NCBI RefSeq assembly: GCF_003477705.1
Contig: NZ_QUDV01000001.1
Location: 1-64,000 of the forward strand
Direction: 5' to 3'
Source: Dorea sp. AF36-15AT
GTDB taxonomy: Bacteria > Bacillota > Clostridia > Lachnospirales > Lachnospiraceae
Length of the DNA stretch: 64,000 nucleotides
Shown: positions 4,404 to 13,025 of the stretch, piece after piece
Layout: every line of letters begins with the position of its first letter
Numbering within the stretch: the first letter of the stretch is position 1
Program-made: the position numbers and the translations under genes
Notes under the pieces: model-generated
What the model saw: the letters and a program-made list of their open reading frames with translations, nothing else
What the model was told of the DNA's origin: nothing
The model's database searches: none

Positions 4404-4898
4404 ATGCTTTCAAAAAAATCTGCAGTTCCGTTTAGAGGAACGAAGGAGCAGGAAGAAGAACTGCTTAAGGTGATCGAAGAATTGAAAGATGAAAAAGGCG
4501 CTTTGATGCCGATTATGCAGAGAGCGCAGGACATCTATGGATATCTGCCGATCGAGGTCCAGAAAATTATCTCAGACCAGACGGGAATCCCGTTGGAGAA
4601 GATTTATGGAGTGGCAACATTTTATGCACAGTTTAATCTGAGTCCGAAGGGACGATATCAGATATCTGTCTGTCTTGGCACGGCATGCTATGTAAAGGGA
4701 TCCGGCGATATTTATAACAAGCTGATGGAAAAGCTTGGTATCGTGGGCGGAGAGTGTACGCCGGACGGAAGATTTTCGCTGGATGCGTGCCGTTGTATCG
4801 GGGCCTGTGGACTGGCACCGGTCATGACGATCAATGAAGAAGTATACGGACGCCTGAAGGTGGAGGATATAGATGATATCCTTGCGAAATACGAGTAG
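4404..4898 (+). CDS. hydC: NADH-dependent [FeFe]-hydrogenase, NuoE-like [2Fe-2S] subunit
   Basis: A 164-residue thioredoxin-like ferredoxin of the NuoE/HndA family. The four expected [2Fe-2S] ligands are Cys90, Cys95 (CLGTAC) and Cys131, Cys135 (CIGAC). The N-terminal helical part has the usual QRAQDIYGYLP and GVATFYAQF motifs. It is the small subunit of the trimeric HydABC enzyme and passes electrons between the flavin subunit and the hydrogenase. The start ATG has GGAGGT 8 bases upstream. It is first in the order hydC-hydB-hydA, with gaps of only 31 and 15 bases, so the three form one transcript. Confidence 0.95.
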   Translation: MLSKKSAVPFRGTKEQEEELLKVIEELKDEKGALMPIMQRAQDIYGYLPIEVQKIISDQTGIPLEKIYGVATFYAQFNLSPKGRYQISVCLGTACYVKGSGDIYNKLMEKLGIVGGECTPDGRFSLDACRCIGACGLAPVMTINEEVYGRLKVEDIDDILAKYE

Positions 4899-4929
4899 TG
4901 GTTAACTTGATTAGAAGTGGAGGGACAGA

Positions 4930-6825
4930 ATGAAATCTCTGGAAGAATTACGGGTAATTAGAGAGCGTATGCAGGGAACAGTGGCATACCGCTCAGAACA
5001 CGAATCTCTGGAAGAGGCTGTAGCTTCTGAGCACGGCAAGTACCGCACTCATGTGCTGGTATGCGGAGGAACAGGATGTACATCATCCGGCAGCCAGAAG
5101 ATCAGAGAACGTCTGGATGAAGAGATCCGGAAGAACGGACTGGAAGAGGAAGTATGTGTGATCAAGACAGGTTGTTTTGGTCTGTGTGCGCTGGGACCGA
5201 TCATGATTGTGTATCCGGAGGGCGCGTTTTATTCTATGGTCAAGGAAGAAGACATTCCTGAGATTGTAGAAGAGCATCTGGCAAAGGGCAATGTAGTGAA
5301 GAGACTGCTCTATGATGAGACGGTGAAGGGAGAAGATGTACTTCCGCTGCAGGAGACGAATTTCTATAAGAAGCAGCACCGTGTGGCACTGCGTAACTGT
5401 GGCGTGATCAGTCCGGAGAATATTGACGAATACATAGGTACAAGAGGATATGAGGCGTTAGGTAAGGTGCTGACCGAGATGACACCTGCAGAAGTTATTC
5501 AGGTGATGCTTGACAGCGGACTCAGAGGAAGAGGCGGTGCAGGTTTCCCAACCGGTATGAAATGGAAATTCGCGGCAGCGAATGAAGCAGATCAGAAATA
5601 TGTCTGTTGTAACGCCGATGAGGGTGACCCGGGTGCATTTATGGACAGATCCGTACTGGAAGGTGATCCGCACGTTGTACTGGAAGCCATGGCGATCGCA
5701 GGCTATGCCATTGGGGCGTCACAGGGATATATCTACGTGCGTGCAGAGTATCCAATCGCAGTAGAACGTCTGAATATTGCGATTAAGCAGGCAAGAGAAT
5801 ACGGACTGCTTGGCGAAGATATATTTGGATCGGGATTTGATTTTGATATTGAGCTTCGTCTGGGAGCAGGAGCATTTGTCTGCGGAGAAGAGACCGCACT
5901 GATGACTTCGATCGAGGGTAACCGAGGAGAACCGAGACCGCGTCCGCCATTCCCGGCATTAAAGGGACTGTTCCAGAAGCCGACAATTCTGAATAACGTA
6001 GAGACACTGGCGAATATCCCACAGATTATCCTGAACGGTCCGGAATGGTTTGCATCGATGGGAACAGAAAAGTCCAAAGGAACCAAGGTATTTGCTCTGG
6101 GAGGCAAGGTCAATAATACCGGTCTGGTAGAGATTCCGATGGGAACGACTCTGCGGGAGATTGTAGAAGAGATCGGCGGAGGCATTCCGAAGGGCAAGAA
6201 GTTCAAGGCTGCGCAGACCGGAGGTCCGTCCGGCGGATGTATTCCGACAGAGAATTTTGATGTACCGATCGACTATGATAACCTGATCGCGATCGGTTCC
6301 ATGATGGGTTCCGGTGGTCTGATTGTTATGGATGAAGATACCTGTATGGTAGATATTGCCAAATTCTTCCTCGAATTTACTGTGGATGAATCCTGTGGCA
6401 AATGTGCACCGTGCCGTATTGGTACCAGACGTATGCTGGAGATCTTAGAGAAGATTACCAAGGGACAGGGAACGATGGAAGATCTGGACCGTCTGGAAGA
6501 ACTGGCAGCGCATCTGAAGTCGAATTCACTGTGTGCGCTTGGTCAGACAGCACCGAATCCGGTACTCTCTACCCTGCGTTACTTTAAAGATGAATACATT
6601 GCCCATATTGTGGATAAGAAATGTCCGGCAGGTGTTTGTAAGGATCTGCTGCAGTACAAGATCAATGCGGACAAATGTAAGGGTTGTACGCTTTGTGCAC
6701 GTATCTGTCCGAATGGTGCGATCAGCGGTAAAGTAAAAGAACCACATGCGATCAATCCGGAGAAATGTTTGAAATGTGGTGCATGTATGGAAAAATGTCG
6801 CTTCGGTGCGATTTATAAGGAATAA
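4930..6825 (+). CDS. hydB: NADH-dependent [FeFe]-hydrogenase, NuoF-like FMN/NADH subunit
   Basis: A 631-residue flavoprotein. Domains in order: an N-terminal thioredoxin-like [2Fe-2S] domain with Cys45, Cys50, Cys82 and Cys86; the FMN/NADH core with GLRGRGGAGFPTG (197-209) and NADEGDPGAFMDR (228-240); a SLBB-type segment; the four-Cys [4Fe-4S] site ESCGKCAPC with a later Cys in NSLCALG; and a C-terminal two-cluster ferredoxin (CKGCTLCARICP, CLKCGACMEKC). The extra terminal FeS domains relative to complex I NuoF are typical of HydB/HndC subunits of trimeric hydrogenases. It is the probable site of electron bifurcation between NADH and ferredoxin. It sits between hydC and hydA. Confidence 0.96.
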   Translation: MKSLEELRVIRERMQGTVAYRSEHESLEEAVASEHGKYRTHVLVCGGTGCTSSGSQKIRERLDEEIRKNGLEEEVCVIKTGCFGLCALGPIMIVYPEGAFYSMVKEEDIPEIVEEHLAKGNVVKRLLYDETVKGEDVLPLQETNFYKKQHRVALRNCGVISPENIDEYIGTRGYEALGKVLTEMTPAEVIQVMLDSGLRGRGGAGFPTGMKWKFAAANEADQKYVCCNADEGDPGAFMDRSVLEGDPHVVLEAMAIAGYAIGASQGYIYVRAEYPIAVERLNIAIKQAREYGLLGEDIFGSGFDFDIELRLGAGAFVCGEETALMTSIEGNRGEPRPRPPFPALKGLFQKPTILNNVETLANIPQIILNGPEWFASMGTEKSKGTKVFALGGKVNNTGLVEIPMGTTLREIVEEIGGGIPKGKKFKAAQTGGPSGGCIPTENFDVPIDYDNLIAIGSMMGSGGLIVMDEDTCMVDIAKFFLEFTVDESCGKCAPCRIGTRRMLEILEKITKGQGTMEDLDRLEELAAHLKSNSLCALGQTAPNPVLSTLRYFKDEYIAHIVDKKCPAGVCKDLLQYKINADKCKGCTLCARICPNGAISGKVKEPHAINPEKCLKCGACMEKCRFGAIYKE

Positions 6826-6840
6826 GGGAGGATAGAGAAT

Positions 6841-8583
6841 ATGGAAACGGTTAATCTTACAATCAATGGACTGAAAGTATCTGCACCGGCCGGCTCTACG
6901 ATCCTTGAGGCAGCACATGCAGCCGGAATCAGAATTCCTACTCTCTGCTATTTGAAGGAGATCAATGAGATCGGTGCATGTCGTATGTGTGTAGTAGAAG
7001 TAAAAGGAGCCCGTAATCTGGTAGCTGCCTGTGTACATCCGGTCAGTGAAGGGATGGAAGTGTATACGAATACACCGAAGCTGATTTCATCCAGAAAGAA
7101 GACACTGCAGCTCTTGTTGTCGAACCATGATAAGAAATGTCTGTCCTGTGTGCGCAGCGGTAACTGTGAATTACAGCAGCTCTGCAGGGAATATGGCGTG
7201 GATGATGAGAATTATTTTGCAGGTGAGAGTAATCACTATGAGTTGGATGATTCCGCAGCGCATATGATCCGTGACAATAACAAATGTATCTTGTGCCGCA
7301 GATGCGTGGCTGTCTGTGAGAAAGTTCAGGGAGTCGGCGTGATCGGAACCAATAACCGTGGATTTGCGACCTTTATCGGTTCTGCATTTGACATGGGACT
7401 TGGAGAGACCAGTTGTGTATCCTGTGGACAGTGTATCGCAGTCTGTCCGACCGGTGCATTATATGAAAAAGATTATACAGATAAGATTATAGAAGCAATC
7501 GCTGATCCGGAGAAATACGTGGTCGTTCAGACTGCACCATCTGTCAGAGCCGCGCTTGGCGAAGAATTCGGTTATCCGATGGGAACGGATGTGGAAGGCA
7601 AGATGGTAGCAGCGCTCAGAAGAATCGGATTTGACCGTGTATTTGATACGGACTGGGCAGCAGACCTGACGATTATGGAAGAGGCACATGAGCTTCTGGA
7701 ACGTGTACAGAATGGTGGAAAGCTTCCGCTGATCACATCCTGCTCGCCTGGATGGATCAAATACTGCGAGCACTATTTCCCGGATATGACAGAGAATCTG
7801 TCCAGCTGCAAATCACCGCAGCAGATGTTTGGTGCGATGGTGAAGACTTACTTTGCCGAGAAGCAGGGTATCGATCCGAAGAATATCGTATCGGTCAGCG
7901 TGATGCCATGTACGGCCAAGAAGTTCGAGATCGGAAGAGATCATCAGAATGCAGCCGGAGTACCGGATGTGGATATTGCCATCACTACCAGGGAACTGGC
8001 ACGATTGATCCGTCGTTGTGGTATTGAATTTACTGCACTTCCGGATGAAGGCTTTGATGATCCGATGGGTGAGTCTACGGGAGCGGCAGTAATCTTTGGA
8101 GCGACCGGCGGTGTTATGGAAGCAGCTCTTCGTACTGCGGTGGAGACATTGACGGGAGAAGAACTTGCTAATCTGGAATTTACAGATGTGCGTGGCACAA
8201 AGGGCATCAAAGAGGCTGAATATCAGGTGGCAGGCATGGATATTCGTGTGGCAGTTGCTTCGGGACTTGGCAATGCAAGAGAACTTCTGGAGCAGGTAAA
8301 ATCTGGTGAGAAACAGTATCACTTTATCGAGATCATGGGATGTCCGGGCGGATGTGTCAACGGAGGCGGCCAGCCGCAGGTATCCGGTGATGTGCGTAAT
8401 TTCACTGATGTACGTGGTATTCGTGCAAGCGTACTGTATCGCAATGATCAGGCGAAGGTAATCCGTAAATCGCATGAGAATCCGGCAATCAAGAAACTGT
8501 ATGAAGAGTATCTGGGAGAACCGGGAAGCAAGAAAGCACATGAGACATTGCATACAACCTATGTAAAACGCACAGTTAATTAA
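6841..8583 (+). CDS. hydA: [FeFe]-hydrogenase catalytic subunit (group A, HydA/HndD type)
   Basis: A 580-residue enzyme that reduces protons to H2 or oxidises H2. It has an N-terminal [2Fe-2S] domain (Cys36, 47, 50, 64), a His/Cys cluster (His96, Cys100, 103, 109), two [4Fe-4S] sites (Cys149-159 and Cys192-202), and the H-cluster domain. L1 reads TSCSPGW (299-305), L2 is MPCTAKKFE (Cys357) and L3 is MGCPGGCVNGGG (Cys501, Cys505). In a gapless comparison with the Clostridium pasteurianum enzyme as I remember it, the second Cys of its TSCCPGW is Ser302 here. The same TSCSPGW form is, as I recall, usual in HndD-type subunits, so it need not mean loss of activity. It completes the hydCBA operon. 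Confidence 0.96.
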   Translation: METVNLTINGLKVSAPAGSTILEAAHAAGIRIPTLCYLKEINEIGACRMCVVEVKGARNLVAACVHPVSEGMEVYTNTPKLISSRKKTLQLLLSNHDKKCLSCVRSGNCELQQLCREYGVDDENYFAGESNHYELDDSAAHMIRDNNKCILCRRCVAVCEKVQGVGVIGTNNRGFATFIGSAFDMGLGETSCVSCGQCIAVCPTGALYEKDYTDKIIEAIADPEKYVVVQTAPSVRAALGEEFGYPMGTDVEGKMVAALRRIGFDRVFDTDWAADLTIMEEAHELLERVQNGGKLPLITSCSPGWIKYCEHYFPDMTENLSSCKSPQQMFGAMVKTYFAEKQGIDPKNIVSVSVMPCTAKKFEIGRDHQNAAGVPDVDIAITTRELARLIRRCGIEFTALPDEGFDDPMGESTGAAVIFGATGGVMEAALRTAVETLTGEELANLEFTDVRGTKGIKEAEYQVAGMDIRVAVASGLGNARELLEQVKSGEKQYHFIEIMGCPGGCVNGGGQPQVSGDVRNFTDVRGIRASVLYRNDQAKVIRKSHENPAIKKLYEEYLGEPGSKKAHETLHTTYVKRTVN

Positions 8584-8605
8584 GGATAGTCCATAATATT
8601 TTAGA

Positions 8606-8637
8606 AGGGTGGAAATGCATTGCATTTCTGCCCTTTC
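8606..8637 (+). terminator. Possible terminator after hydCBA
   Basis: A long imperfect stem (about 8606-8619 with 8621-8636, AAGGGTGGAAATGCA against TGCATTTCTGCCCTT) is followed by a short pyrimidine run TCTTCT. It would at least partly separate hydCBA from the genes below. Confidence 0.55.
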
Positions 8638-8694
8638 TTCTATACAATAAAAGCAGAATATCTTTGATGTCTGACATCAATGAGGGAGGCTGTA

Positions 8695-9339
8695 ATGGGA
8701 AACTATCAATATTATTTATTCGATCTGGATGGTACGCTGACGGATTCAGGAGAAGGAATTATGAATTCAATCCGTCATGCTTTGCATAAATTTGGAATTA
8801 CAGAGTATGAGGAAACGACACTGCGTAAGTTTATCGGACCACCGCTTGCAGAGTGCTTTCAGAAGTATTTTGATCTGTCACCGGAGGAAGCACGCAAGGG
8901 AATCGATTATTACCGGGAATATTATACTGATGGGGGAATGTTTGAAAATGAGGTCTATCATGGCGTAAAAGAGCTGTTAGAGGGTTTGAATGCGAAAGGA
9001 AAGACATTGATTGTTGCTACGTCAAAGCCTGAGTTATTTGCGGAGCAGATTCTGGAACATTTTGATCTGGCGAAGTATTTTGCCTGTATTGCCGGAGCGT
9101 CTATGGACGAGACCAGAGTGCATAAAGATGATGTGATTGCTTATGCATTGCAGAAGTATAAAGGAATTGATCATAAAAAAGCGGTGATGATCGGCGATCG
9201 TTCGCATGATATTATGGGCGGTAAAGCGAATGGCATGGATACGATCGGAGTGCTTTATGGATTTGGAAACCGGGAAGAATTAGAAGAAGCCGGAGCTGAT
9301 ATTATTGTGGAGACACCAGAAGAAATATTGAGATATTAA
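8695..9339 (+). CDS. HAD-superfamily phosphatase, phosphoglycolate-phosphatase like (Gph/PpaX type)
   Basis: A 214-residue HAD hydrolase. Motif I is DLDGTLTDSG near the N-terminus, motif II is VATSKPE, and motifs III/IV lie in K-(A)-VMIGDRSHDIMGGKANGM. The cap is the alpha-helical type of the phosphoglycolate or pyrophosphatase branch. The frame is open from 8680, but a GGGAGG site lies between that ATG and the one at 8695, so 8695 is the start. The substrate cannot be read from sequence. It lies between hydA and the sensory hydrogenase, 21 bases before the latter, and is probably transcribed with it; a metabolic link is not obvious. Confidence 0.88.
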   Translation: MGNYQYYLFDLDGTLTDSGEGIMNSIRHALHKFGITEYEETTLRKFIGPPLAECFQKYFDLSPEEARKGIDYYREYYTDGGMFENEVYHGVKELLEGLNAKGKTLIVATSKPELFAEQILEHFDLAKYFACIAGASMDETRVHKDDVIAYALQKYKGIDHKKAVMIGDRSHDIMGGKANGMDTIGVLYGFGNREELEEAGADIIVETPEEILRY

Positions 9340-9360
9340 GGTATGTGAGGAGGGCTTTGC

Positions 9361-11073
9361 ATGAAGGTCATTGATTTTAAGGATGCCAAATGCAGACATT
9401 GTTACAAATGTGTCCGTTATTGTGAGGTAAAGGCAATTTCAGTACAGAATGAACAGGCGCATATTATGGAGGATCACTGTATTCACTGTGGACAGTGCCT
9501 GGAAGTCTGTCCGCAGAATGCCAAGACATTTGCCAGCGATATGGAACGGGTGAAGGGATATCTTCAGAGAGGTGTGCGTACGGTGCTTTCACTTGCACCG
9601 TCATATCTCAGTGTACTTGACTTTGATCAGCCCGGACAGGTGGTAGATGCACTTATGAGGCTTGGGTTTGATGAAGTGCGGGAAACAGCAGAAGGTGCAG
9701 CATTAGTCACAGAAGAGTATCAAAAGCTACTTAAAAGTGGACAGATGACGAACATCATCTCTACTTGTTGTCCAAGTATTAATGATTTGATCGAGAAATA
9801 TTATCCAACATTAGTCCCGATGATGGCTCCTGTTGTATCTCCGATGATTGCACATGGACGTCTGATTAAGCAGATGTATGGACCAGATGTGAAAGTCGTC
9901 TTTCTGGGACCTTGTATTGCTAAAAAAGCAGAAGCAGTTGGAGATGAGCGGGTAGAGGGAGCAATTAATGCCATTTTGACATTTGAAGAGATTATCCGTT
10001 GGTGGAGAGAAGAAGGTATCAGGGTAGAGGAATGCGAAGACAAGCCGATGGGTAATCCGGATCCGGGGGTGAACCGGTTGTATCCAATAGGCGGAGGTGT
10101 GATTACATCCGTACTGACAGGAGGACTGGAAGATCATTATGAGAAATTTCATGCAGAGGGAATTAAGACATGTATGGAATTACTGGATGAACTGATACGT
10201 GGAGAGGTAAAAGGCGGATTTTTTGAACTAAATGTATGTAAAGGTGGATGTGTAAAAGGACCGGCTGCTGAACGATGGAAACGTTCTATGCTAAAAGCAA
10301 GGCTGGATCTGGAACATCAGGTGAAATATACGGAAGAAGCTGTGCATATAGAACATGAGCCAATTCTTCTGGATAAGGTATTTGAAGATCGTTACATCCA
10401 GGATGATCAGCCAACAGAACGAGAGCTTACAGAAGTGCTTCGCGCTATGGGAAAATATGCAAGACAGGATGAACTGAATTGCGGAGCGTGTGGATATGCT
10501 ACCTGCAGAGCCAAAGCAGAAGCTGTATATCAGGGAAAGGCAGAGATCAGCATGTGTCTGCCACACGCAGTGGCACAGGCTGAGTCTATGTCAAATCTGG
10601 TAATGGATGCAACACCGAACATGGTCTTGATTGTCGATCGGGATATGCATATAAGGGAATGCAATAAAAGAATGCTGGATAAGCTGGGAATTTCCCGAGA
10701 AGAGGCACTGGAGCGATATATTTTTGAATTTATTGAGGTTGAAGATATTGAACAGGTGCTGGAAGATAAAAAATCCATTTTAAGGAAACGAATTCAGTTA
10801 GAAACACTTGATGTTATTGCTAAAGAAACGATTGTGTATATAGAGTCGGTGGATTCGGCATTGGTTGTCTATCAGGATGTGAGCAAAGAGGAAAAGGCGA
10901 GAGAACAGCACATGAATCTGAAGATGGAGACGATTGATATCGCGCAGAAGGTCATTGATAAGCAGATGATGGTAGCACAGGAAATTGCCGGACTGCTGGG
11001 AGAGACTACAGCAGAGACCAAAGTGACGCTTTCTAAGTTGAGAGATTCGATTCTGGATGACGGAGAGGATTAA
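9361..11073 (+). CDS. hydS: Putative H2-sensing [FeFe]-hydrogenase with PAS domain (HydS, group C)
   Basis: A 570-residue protein built as: two-cluster ferredoxin (Cys11, 14, 17, 21 and Cys40, 43, 46, 50); an H-cluster domain with STCCPS (Cys136, Cys137), GPCIAKKAE (Cys185) and VCKGGCVKG (Cys293, Cys297); a Fes-type [4Fe-4S] domain CGACGYATC ... MC (Cys374, 377, 382, 399); a PAS domain at about 412-510; and a short helical tail. It lacks the [2Fe-2S] and His-cluster domains of HydA. This architecture matches the group C hydrogenases proposed to sense H2 or redox state and signal through PAS. The L1 and L3 loops differ from catalytic enzymes, but all cluster cysteines remain. The phosphatase gene starts one base after its stop codon. 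Confidence 0.92.
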   Translation: MKVIDFKDAKCRHCYKCVRYCEVKAISVQNEQAHIMEDHCIHCGQCLEVCPQNAKTFASDMERVKGYLQRGVRTVLSLAPSYLSVLDFDQPGQVVDALMRLGFDEVRETAEGAALVTEEYQKLLKSGQMTNIISTCCPSINDLIEKYYPTLVPMMAPVVSPMIAHGRLIKQMYGPDVKVVFLGPCIAKKAEAVGDERVEGAINAILTFEEIIRWWREEGIRVEECEDKPMGNPDPGVNRLYPIGGGVITSVLTGGLEDHYEKFHAEGIKTCMELLDELIRGEVKGGFFELNVCKGGCVKGPAAERWKRSMLKARLDLEHQVKYTEEAVHIEHEPILLDKVFEDRYIQDDQPTERELTEVLRAMGKYARQDELNCGACGYATCRAKAEAVYQGKAEISMCLPHAVAQAESMSNLVMDATPNMVLIVDRDMHIRECNKRMLDKLGISREEALERYIFEFIEVEDIEQVLEDKKSILRKRIQLETLDVIAKETIVYIESVDSALVVYQDVSKEEKAREQHMNLKMETIDIAQKVIDKQMMVAQEIAGLLGETTAETKVTLSKLRDSILDDGED

Positions 11074-11074
11074 G

Positions 11075-12247
11075 ATGAGTGTAAGTGTAGATATTTGCTG
11101 GAAAAGTTTTAACAAGAATCGTGAAGAATTGTGTGGAGATAAAGTCGAAGTACTGAAAACAGAAGATTCCAGTATTATTATTCTTGCAGATGGTATGGGA
11201 AGTGGAGTAAAAGCGAATATTCTTGCAACACTGACATCAAAGATTTTGGGCACGATGTTTCGGGAGGGCGCAGAGATTGATGCATGTGTTGAGACGATTG
11301 CCCGTACACTGCCTATCTGTAAAGAACGGGAAGTAGCATATGCGACATTCAGTATCTTGCAGATTTTTCGAGATGGAGAAGCCTATCTGGTAGAATATGA
11401 TAATCCAAAATGCGTGTTTATACGCAACAAAGAAATAATAAACTATCCTTATCAGGAGCGAGTCATTGAAGGAAAGAAGATTCGTGAGTATCGATTTCAT
11501 GTAGAACTCAATGATTGTTTTGTACTGATGAGTGATGGGGCAATCTGGGCCGGCGAAGAAGAAACTATGAACTATAACTGGGAGTGGGATGATATGGCAG
11601 CTTATACGCTAAAATGTACGAACGAGACATTGTCGGCAGCAAGACTGGCAGCTATGCTCAGCCAGGTGTGTTACGACCTGTATGGACAGAAGCCGGGAGA
11701 TGATACAACCGTTGCAGTAACCAGAGTTATCCGCAGACAGGTGGTCAATATCTTCACAGGTCCACCGTCCAGAAAGGAAGATGATGAGCGGGTTGTACAT
11801 GATTTTATGAAGCAGGAAGGCAAGAAAGTTATTTGTGGCGGTACCAGTGCCAATGTGGCATCTCGTGTATTAAAACGGGAGATCGTAACGCTGGTCAAGC
11901 ATGCAGATCCAAAGATTCCGCCAATGGCAACAATGGAAGGTCTGGATCTGGTAACGGAAGGCGTATTGACCATCGGAAGTGCGCTGGATCTCCTGCACCG
12001 CTATGAAAATGATGATTTTGATGAAGCATTTTTTGATGCACTGGATGCAGAGAACGGTGCAGCCAAACTTGCAAGGCTGTTGATCGAAGAGTGTACGGAT
12101 CTGAATCTTTTTGTAGGAAGAGCACTGAATCCTGCACACCAGAATTCTAATCTGCCATTCGATCTCAGCGTGCGTATGAATCTGGTAGAACAGCTGAAGG
12201 ATTGTGCAGAGCGGATGGGTAAACATGTGACAGTGAAGTATTATTAG
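11075..12247 (+). CDS. SpoIIE/PP2C-type serine phosphatase linked to the sensory hydrogenase
   Basis: A 390-residue protein. The N-terminal ~215 residues are a PPM/PP2C phosphatase with the metal-binding motifs ILADGMGSG, LMSDGAIWAG and GDDTTVAV. The following ~170 residues are a separate domain that begins VVNIFTGPPSRKEDDERVV, contains KKVICGGTSANVASR, and is not known to me. It would remove phosphate from Ser/Thr of a partner protein. The ATG at 11075 has GGAGAGG 6 bases upstream; an in-frame ATG at 11057 lies before that site and is less likely. The gene is translationally coupled to the sensory hydrogenase, matching the described phosphatase-linked type of group C. No kinase or anti-sigma partner is visible in the window. 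Confidence 0.9.
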   Translation: MSVSVDICWKSFNKNREELCGDKVEVLKTEDSSIIILADGMGSGVKANILATLTSKILGTMFREGAEIDACVETIARTLPICKEREVAYATFSILQIFRDGEAYLVEYDNPKCVFIRNKEIINYPYQERVIEGKKIREYRFHVELNDCFVLMSDGAIWAGEEETMNYNWEWDDMAAYTLKCTNETLSAARLAAMLSQVCYDLYGQKPGDDTTVAVTRVIRRQVVNIFTGPPSRKEDDERVVHDFMKQEGKKVICGGTSANVASRVLKREIVTLVKHADPKIPPMATMEGLDLVTEGVLTIGSALDLLHRYENDDFDEAFFDALDAENGAAKLARLLIEECTDLNLFVGRALNPAHQNSNLPFDLSVRMNLVEQLKDCAERMGKHVTVKYY

Positions 12248-12296
12248 ACTGTATTGAAAAAGAATTATTAAAAGTAGTAAAATGGCAGGTGATATT

Positions 12297-12566
12297 ATGA
12301 AGGTCGAAGAAGTTATAAGTGAGGTTGCAAAACTTTGCAGAAACTTTCATGCTAAAGAAGTGATTTTATATGGATCAAGAGCAAAAGGGACTGCGAGAGA
12401 GCGAAGTGATATAGATATCGCGGTCACGGGAGTAAAGAATTTTGATATACTTGAGGAAAAGATAGAAGAATTGCCGACATTGTATAGTGTTGATTTGTTG
12501 AATATGGATACTTGTAGAAATGATTTGTTAAAGGAGGATATCAGACAGTATGGACGAGAAATTTAA
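12297..12566 (+). CDS. MNT-type nucleotidyltransferase (antitoxin-like, MntA/HI0073 family)
   Basis: An 89-residue minimal nucleotidyltransferase with the core motif ILYGSRAKG and the metal-binding SDIDIAV that follows. Two ATGs are possible (12282 and 12297); the second follows AGGTGA at a suitable distance. Such proteins pair with HEPN or substrate-binding partners; in the known toxin-antitoxin system the MNT enzyme adds AMP to the HEPN toxin. Its partner gene overlaps its 3' end by 17 bases here but is truncated, so this copy may have lost its function or be free-standing. Cytoplasmic. Confidence 0.86.
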   Translation: MKVEEVISEVAKLCRNFHAKEVILYGSRAKGTARERSDIDIAVTGVKNFDILEEKIEELPTLYSVDLLNMDTCRNDLLKEDIRQYGREI

Positions 12567-12723: not shown

Positions 12724-12785
12724 TTTATTCTATGATTTCAAAAATGTGGTAAATGAATTAATGTTATAAAATAGAGGGAATGAGT

Positions 12786-13025
12786 ATGATAGCTTTTGGT
12801 TATGAAAAAGATAATGATGAAGAAAAACTGATGAAATTGAGTGAAACTACGTTACAATGCAACAACGAAGAACTGGATAGAATTATAGATTTTCTAAATC
12901 GGATTAAGAATACAAATTATGAAGCAGGAGATCATTATCACTACAGAGATTTTAATAAGAAGTGGACTTCAGAAGAATCGGATTTTATTATTTTTTTGGA
13001 AGAAGATGTAGAAAGTTCGAGATAA
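12786..13025 (+). CDS. Small acidic protein, function unknown
   Basis: A 79-residue soluble protein (MIAFGYEKDNDEEKLMKLSE). It has a helix-like centre (NEELDRIIDFLNRIKNTNY) and an acidic end (DFIIFLEEDVESS). The in-frame ATG at 12780 is almost on top of the GAGGG site, so the ATG at 12786, 7 bases after it, is preferred. It is one of several short orphan genes next to the decayed MNT pair. I recognise no family; the mix of aromatic residues and the ordered pattern make it look like a real protein. Confidence 0.55.
   Translation: MIAFGYEKDNDEEKLMKLSETTLQCNNEELDRIIDFLNRIKNTNYEAGDHYHYRDFNKKWTSEESDFIIFLEEDVESSR

What the first reader, a model, noticed from the sequence alone, without database searches (positions are those of the whole stretch)
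4404..12247. Bifurcating hydrogenase operon beside a putative H2-sensing hydrogenase and a PP2C phosphatase
hydCBA is followed within 8 kb by a HAD phosphatase, a PAS-containing group C type [FeFe]-hydrogenase (9361-11073) and a SpoIIE/PP2C phosphatase whose gene starts one base after the hydrogenase stop. Coupling of the last two genes means they are made together. The sensor keeps all H-cluster and FeS cysteines but lacks the [2Fe-2S] and His-cluster domains of the catalytic subunit. This would form a complete circuit: the enzyme makes H2, the sensor reads it, and the phosphatase changes a partner protein. The phosphatase target is unknown, and no kinase is nearby. The family is established (group C, phosphatase-linked); the circuit is inference.
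Basis: partly seen in the sequence, partly recalled or inferred. Interest (0 to 1): 0.72.

Follow-up and report, generated by a model that had tools for sequence, protein, structure and literature searches.

The report
Hydrogen-sensor and phosphatase gene pair
A gut-type bacterium carries, next to its hydrogen-making enzyme, a known but poorly understood pair of genes thought to sense hydrogen gas and switch a protein phosphatase; comparing relatives shows that the two nearly always occur together and points to a short tail on the sensor as the likely contact, while what the phosphatase acts on is still unknown.

Summary
The genes are real and at the stated coordinates: hydCBA (HydA: NCBIfam group A6), a HAD phosphatase, a PAS-containing sensory-type [FeFe] hydrogenase (HydS) and a SpoIIE/PP2C phosphatase (P). 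It is a new member of a published class: HydDB group C3, 'phosphatase-linked (putative)'; compare the HydS/phosphatase of Ruminococcus albus and HfsB/HfsC of Thermoanaerobacterium. Two features stood out that I did not see in the passages I read: a 46-residue HydS tail, better conserved than the PAS domain, which co-occurs with P (105 genomes with both, 7 with one, 279 with neither, of 391); and a C-terminal domain of P of about 169 residues with no Pfam match in the window's copy. I propose a split RsbP-like switch: H2 state, PAS, tail, phosphatase in trans. The closed hydCBA circuit is not shown: a terminator-like hairpin follows hydA, linkage to hydCBA is partial, and the target is unknown.

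The parts
4404..4898 (+). hydC, thioredoxin-like [2Fe-2S] subunit of the bifurcating-type hydrogenase
   Evidence: PF01257 E 7e-51
4930..6825 (+). hydB, NuoF-like flavin subunit
   Evidence: Complex1_51K, NADH_4Fe-4S, SLBB; TIGR01959 510 bits, below its cut-off of 559
6841..8583 (+). hydA, catalytic subunit, NADH-dependent group A6
   Evidence: NF040763 927.7 bits against a cut-off of 765; best solved relative 7q4v_A, Iron hydrogenase HydA1
8604..8636 (+). terminator-like RNA hairpin between hydA and the HAD gene
   Evidence: 15-bp stem; z -3.86 for the 96-nt intergenic stretch; not listed by the simple terminator scan
8680..9339 (+). HAD-family phosphatase; neighbour, not a conserved part of the module
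   Evidence: PF13419 E 8e-36; near HydS in few relatives
9361..11073 (+). hydS, putative H2-sensing [FeFe] hydrogenase, group C type
   Evidence: C3 type by phosphatase linkage
9580..10263 (+). HydS H-cluster domain (residues 74-301)
   Evidence: PF02906 E 1.5e-53; Cys 137, 185, 293, 297 invariant in 157 of 157
10474..10563 (+). HydS Cys4 FeS domain between H-domain and PAS
   Evidence: PF04060 E 1.9e-13; 4 Cys invariant in 157 of 157
10600..10845 (+). HydS PAS domain
   Evidence: PF00989 E 1.3e-6
10918..11055 (+). HydS C-terminal tail (residues 520-565), proposed phosphatase contact
   Evidence: median 61% identity to the window across 77 wider HydS against 25% for PAS; co-occurs with P
11075..11737 (+). 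phosphatase P, PP2C/SpoIIE catalytic domain
11738..12247 (+). phosphatase P, uncharacterised C-terminal alpha/beta domain (CTD) plus stop

Best explanation
HydS and P are a two-protein H2-sensing switch of the published phosphatase-linked (C3) type. Shown here: the two genes are a conserved, tightly spaced pair; HydS keeps all H-cluster and accessory-cluster cysteines; HydS carries a highly conserved tail that co-occurs with P; P is a PP2C domain with no N-terminal sensor or linker plus a conserved extra C-terminal domain. Inferred: H2 (or the redox state that H2 sets) alters the H-cluster, the change passes through the Cys4 cluster and PAS domain to the tail, and the tail acts in trans as the helical linker that in RsbU/RsbP sits on the phosphatase chain itself, changing P activity. 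The CTD then binds a partner or a small ligand. The output is probably fermentation and hydrogenase expression through an unidentified phosphoprotein; in the window lineage this need not be an RsbW-STAS switch. Direct control of hydCBA is possible but not shown.
For: Linkage 80/80 (HydS-selected) and 76/80 (P-selected); 131 of 157 measured pairs have a gap of -30 to +30 nt, P start placed by homology. Cysteines invariant 157/157. Tail conservation and tail-P co-occurrence: 105 both, 5 P only, 2 tail only, 279 neither; both tail-only cases end at a contig edge, one with a P fragment. The three fetched HydS beside the lowest-scoring P (L218-L220) also have divergent tails. The CTD lies in an open frame near 390 aa in nearly all hits. 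RsbU/RsbP coiled-coil linker precedent (abstract, one section). Published genetics: the ethanol rise seen on hfsA or hfsB deletion is not seen on hfsC, hfsD, hfsCD or whole-operon deletion; adhE transcripts rise on hfsA or hfsB deletion and not on hfsC or hfsD deletion (passages).
Against: No direct evidence of H2 sensing or of a HydS-P contact; HydS was not modelled. In T. thermosaccharolyticum hfsD overexpression in the whole-hfs deletion already gives the ethanol phenotype, so the genetics can be read without HfsC. Genome G155 keeps a c30-P pair with no tail-bearing HydS found. The tail's 61% is matched by the FeS domain (61%), so it may simply be slow to change. Tail-P co-occurrence is inflated by adjacency and shared descent; the test does not correct for phylogeny. 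The C299-position Cys is kept here, unlike most sensory enzymes (17% keep it).
Confidence: 0.6

Rival explanations
1. Closed local circuit: HydS-P directly regulates hydCBA transcription as H2 feedback.
For: hydCBA lies just upstream in the window and an A-type HydA within 6 kb upstream in 30 of 80 HydS-selected loci; the literature proposes H2 feedback in R. albus.
Against: Hairpin after hydA; many HydS-P pairs sit beside a group-B-like hydrogenase or no hydrogenase in the stretch held; the R. albus bifurcating hydrogenase was expressed at similarly high levels in both conditions while the group A1/adhE/HydS cluster changed 111-fold.
Confidence: 0.15
2. Partner switching: P dephosphorylates a STAS protein opposed by an RsbW-type kinase, freeing a sigma factor; in the window's nearest kin held the only STAS match sits next to a HATPase gene (SpoIIAA/SpoIIAB-like), so H2 would feed into sporulation.
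For: P is a SpoIIE/RsbU-type PP2C; an RsbW-like gene together with a group D-like hydrogenase sits upstream in 18 of 80 HydS-selected loci and in one gene run with P in L159 (P, DRTGG-like, RsbW-like); G001 and G002 have one STAS match each, next to a HATPase gene.
Against: The RsbW-like orthologue was not found in 18 of 34 chosen HydS-P genomes incl. G001 and G002. No STAS or RsbW-type ORF was found in the window. Of 80 P-bearing genomes searched, 5 have no STAS match and 2 have STAS only inside long frames; G234, G278 and G389 also have no HATPase_c_2 match over the cut-off. Completeness of these genomes is unknown, and 75 of the 80 do have a STAS match.
Confidence: 0.12
3. HydS is not a sensor but a slow metabolic hydrogenase or electron-transfer subunit, and P is merely co-transcribed.
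For: The proton-transfer cysteine (C299 position) is kept in all 80 HydS-selected and 54 of 77 wider HydS, unlike the 17% reported for sensory hydrogenases; a small [2Fe-2S] protein precedes HydS in 62 of 80 P-selected loci. One paper suggests that remaining HfsABC could form a hydrogenase (passage).
Against: M353 and M497 positions are altered (G and N; mapping by motif) as in sensory enzymes; PAS and tail; hfsB deletion raised in-vitro hydrogenase activity, although H2 production fell.
Confidence: 0.1

Closest known systems
[FeFe] hydrogenase group C3, 'Phosphatase-linked (putative)' (HydDB, PMC5037454; passages seen)
   Same: Putative sensory [FeFe] hydrogenase tied to a serine/threonine phosphatase
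   Different: Nothing found that removes it from the class; HydDB itself could not be run here
HydS and its phosphatase in Ruminococcus albus (PMC6776011; passages seen)
   Same: H-cluster plus PAS sensor with putative Ser/Thr phosphatase; H2-dependent regulation proposed
   Different: There in an eight-gene cluster with a group A1 hydrogenase and an alcohol/aldehyde dehydrogenase; in the window beside hydCBA
hfsABCD of Thermoanaerobacterium (PMC5707799, PMC11837493; passages seen)
   Same: HfsB is an [FeFe] hydrogenase with PAS, HfsC a serine-phosphatase homologue; the order resembles c30-HydS-P-group-B hydrogenase of 27 of 80 P-selected loci
   Different: The window has neither the small upstream gene nor the downstream hydrogenase; sequence identity to HfsA-D was not measured, and that c30 equals HfsA is a guess from order
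RsbU / RsbP / SpoIIE PPM phosphatases (PMC12143880; abstract and one section seen)
   Same: Same PP2C fold; PAS-helix-phosphatase logic of RsbP
   Different: Here sensor and phosphatase are separate chains; P has an extra C-terminal domain and no N-terminal linker
Group D sensory hydrogenase TamHydS (PMC8163306; passages seen)
   Same: Cys4 FeS domain after the H-domain; [quoted passage not shown]
   Different: No PAS domain; the window has no such gene

Membership tests
[FeFe] hydrogenase group C3 (phosphatase-linked) | H-domain with all H-cluster ligand cysteines | tested here: met
   PF02906; 157 of 157 relatives with all four Cys, placed by motif
[FeFe] hydrogenase group C3 (phosphatase-linked) | C-terminal Cys4 FeS domain followed by PAS | tested here: met
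   PF04060 372-401, PAS 414-495
[FeFe] hydrogenase group C3 (phosphatase-linked) | Encoded with a Ser/Thr phosphatase | tested here: met
[FeFe] hydrogenase group C3 (phosphatase-linked) | Altered second-sphere residues (C299, M353, M497) | tested here: inconclusive
   M353 position G and M497 position N, but C299 position Cys (mapped by motif); 17% of sensory sequences keep Cys
[FeFe] hydrogenase group C3 (phosphatase-linked) | Placement in the C3 sequence cluster by HydDB | not testable with these tools
   HydDB not available
[FeFe] hydrogenase group C3 (phosphatase-linked) | H2 sensing | not testable with these tools
   needs protein and H2
SpoIIE/RsbU PPM phosphatase | PP2C domain with the conserved Asp residues | tested here: met
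   PF07228 54.4 bits, cut-off 25; D22, D39, D154, D209/210 invariant in 31 rows
RsbU/RsbP partner-switching module | Cognate STAS substrate and RsbW-type kinase nearby | tested here: not met
   No window ORF matched RsbW-like (E 1e-3) or three STAS and three further RsbW-type queries (E 0.1). The window's own genome is not held, so elsewhere in it is untested
hfsABCD operon | Order HfsA-like, HydS, phosphatase, ferredoxin hydrogenase | tested here: not met
   In the window no c30-type gene lies before HydS and no group-B-type hydrogenase after P
Electron-bifurcating HydABC | HydA group A6, HydB and HydC genes together | tested here: met
   bifurcation itself not testable

The most novel reading that the evidence does not exclude
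Group C3 H2 sensing is a 'split RsbP': the HydS C-terminal tail is an in-trans linker that switches a PP2C phosphatase made as a separate chain, and the phosphatase CTD is a new domain that reads a second input or recruits a non-STAS phosphoprotein controlling fermentation. HydS and P would thus be a sensor pair in which a metalloenzyme speaks to a phosphatase through a short conserved peptide.
Probability: 0.4. Interest if true: 0.65.

Novelty: new member of a known kind. Interest (0 to 1): 0.4.

Why it matters
H2 level decides how gut and rumen fermenters divide electrons between H2, acetate and ethanol, and phosphatase-linked sensory hydrogenases are proposed to sense it, but how the signal leaves the sensor is unknown. 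The conserved tail and its co-occurrence with the phosphatase name a short peptide that can be deleted, mutated or tested for binding. Finding P in a few genomes without a detected STAS or RsbW-type protein suggests that a search for its target should not be confined to sigma-factor switches. The window itself adds one more member and no new class.

Tried and rejected

Limits and rows dropped. The HydS scan kept the best 80 of 233 confirmed places and is biased to close relatives. The STAS search used 80 of the 110 P-bearing genomes because of the handle cap. Neighbourhoods were fetched for 80 P places from 79 of those 110 genomes. Spacing counts use 157 of 160 loci; L157, L159 and L179 lack a HydS hit over 200 bits; a first spacing count with a narrower motif was superseded. 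Clustering gave 78 of 80 for P in the HydS-selected set; L001 and L070 have P hits. Genes were called as longest ORFs, so starts are approximate.
Full report
What is there. The window holds, on one strand, hydC, hydB, hydA, a HAD-family phosphatase, a PAS-containing [FeFe] hydrogenase (HydS) and a SpoIIE-type phosphatase (P) at the coordinates given. HydA passes the NCBIfam cut-off for the NADH-dependent group A6 enzyme. HydS has N-terminal 4Fe-4S motifs, the H-domain, a Cys4 FeS domain and a PAS domain, and no match to the extra FeS families of HydA. P starts at 11075, one base after the HydS stop, or at 11057 with a 17-nt overlap.

A correction to the layout. Between hydA and the HAD gene lies a 15-bp hairpin (8604-8636); the 96-nt stretch folds at -26.9 kcal/mol, z -3.9, with 0 of 200 shuffles as good. 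It looks like a terminator, though the simple scan did not list it. hydCBA and HAD-hydS-P may therefore be separate transcripts; this is inference from sequence.

Linkage in relatives. A genome scan with HydS returned 80 loci, the best 80 of 233 confirmed places; titles name Dorea, Mediterraneibacter, Faecalicatena and other Lachnospiraceae-type or unclassified clostridial organisms. P lies downstream of HydS on the same strand in all 80: 62 spaced -30 to +30 nt, 17 spaced 31 to 130 nt, and L048 at 332 nt (P start placed by homology). In the other direction, the P CTD was found in 110 of 391 genomes drawn from the class of a relative (G007), nearly always in an open frame near 390 aa. Of 80 neighbourhoods fetched around it, HydS precedes P directly in 76. 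The four others are L157 (no HydS found), L159 (a tail-bearing HydS about 16 kb away on the same contig), L179 (contig edge; that genome has a tail-bearing HydS on another contig) and L211 (a short ORF between and a truncated HydS). A small thioredoxin-like [2Fe-2S] gene (called c30 here) precedes HydS in 62 of 80 of these and in 6 of 80 HydS-selected loci, but not in the window.

The sensor tail. In 77 wider HydS the C-terminal tail (residues 520-565) has a median of 61% identity to the window (range 4-80%), equal to the FeS domain (61%) and above the N-terminal ferredoxin (53%), H-domain (38%) and PAS (25%). A motif of the tail occurs in 152 of 158 HydS and in no other ORF of those 160 loci. 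The six without it are two near variants (L148, L195), one truncated ORF (L211) and three divergent HydS (L218-L220) whose P are the lowest-scoring of the set. A 48-residue tail query matched 107 of 391 genomes; 105 of these are among the 110 with P. Both tail-only genomes end at a contig edge there, one with a fragment of P. Of the five P-only genomes, four have a P whose CTD is 29-31% identical to the window and in G155 P follows c30 with no HydS found. Because the genes are adjacent and inherited together, this shows association, not contact.

Search for the kinase and target. The window has no ORF matching the RsbW-like or APH-like queries at E 0.001, nor three STAS and three further RsbW-type queries at E 0.1. 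In 18 of 80 HydS-selected loci an RsbW-like gene and a PAS-less, group D-like hydrogenase lie upstream, many with PHP genes and DRTGG-like genes (the one tested is just below the Pfam cut-off), and in L159 P leads such a run. The RsbW-like orthologue was, however, not found in 18 of 34 chosen HydS-P genomes, including those of the two best-matching loci, G001 and G002. In 13 chosen genomes 9 have one STAS match only; in G001 and G002 it sits next to a HATPase gene. Of 20 top-scoring STAS regions inspected by eye in other P-bearing genomes, 18 show a HATPase gene beside the STAS gene, mostly followed by a sigma factor, a SpoIIA-like layout; L253 ends at a contig edge and L261 was not resolved. 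Of 80 P-bearing genomes, 75 have a STAS match, five have none and two only in long frames; three of these seven (G234, G278, G389) also lack a HATPase_c_2 match over the cut-off. Genome completeness is not known, so this argues against, but does not exclude, partner switching.

Comparison with what is known. HydDB already lists group C3 as phosphatase-linked, role undetermined (passages). R. albus has such a pair in a cluster down 111-fold in co-culture, with direct H2 sensing proposed (passages). In T. saccharolyticum, deletion of hfsA or hfsB raises ethanol yield and adhE transcripts, while deletion of hfsC or hfsD does neither and whole-operon deletion does not raise ethanol (passages). HfsC is described as a serine-phosphatase homologue (passages). 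This would fit HydS restraining P. But hfsD overexpression alone gives the ethanol phenotype in the hfs deletion of T. thermosaccharolyticum, so the order of action is open. RsbU is switched by a helical linker that dimerises the phosphatase, and RsbP is predicted to work alike (abstract, one section); I propose that the HydS tail does this in trans. The paper searches on DRTGG and hydrogenase, C3 and phosphatase and sensory hydrogenase/phosphatase/hfs terms showed no paper on the tail or the CTD as far as their listings and the passages I read go; I did not search for the motif as text, and two central older papers are not held.

Verdict. It is a new member of a known kind. The closed hydCBA circuit is inference with weak support. 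The useful addition is a testable sensor-to-phosphatase contact.

Noticed in passing
window 8604-8636: Strong terminator-like hairpin between hydA and the HAD gene.
   Followed up: partly
window 4930-6825: HydB resembles the free-standing 126-aa 'd' protein of relatives (E 2.6e-13). 'd' is seen in 19 loci; 18 of them also hold the RsbW-like/group D-like pair and the other (L008) is cut at hydC. The window has none of these genes, perhaps by loss.
   Followed up: partly
L003, L020, L023, L036, L069, L078 upstream of hydC: Divergent cluster of group D-like hydrogenase, RsbW-like, DRTGG-like and PHP genes.
   Followed up: partly
L191:5870-6619 and relatives: APH/RIO-fold kinase-like gene directly after adhE in 19 of 20 fetched regions, in some genomes continuing into c30-HydS-P.
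   Followed up: partly
L157:9296-10748: P directly after the small [2Fe-2S] gene with no HydS in between.
   Followed up: no
L004, L006, L007, L009-L014, L017 downstream of P: FIST-domain and methyl-accepting signalling-domain genes follow P in 10 loci, hinting at another input or output.
   Followed up: no
L195; L202 and L203 (G406): Two HydS genes in tandem (L195), and two separate HydS-P pairs in one genome (G406).
   Followed up: no
window 12282-12566 and 12780-13025: Small nucleotidyltransferase resembling MntA antitoxins, below the NCBIfam cut-off, followed by an 81-aa ORF with an Imm32 immunity-protein match.
   Followed up: no
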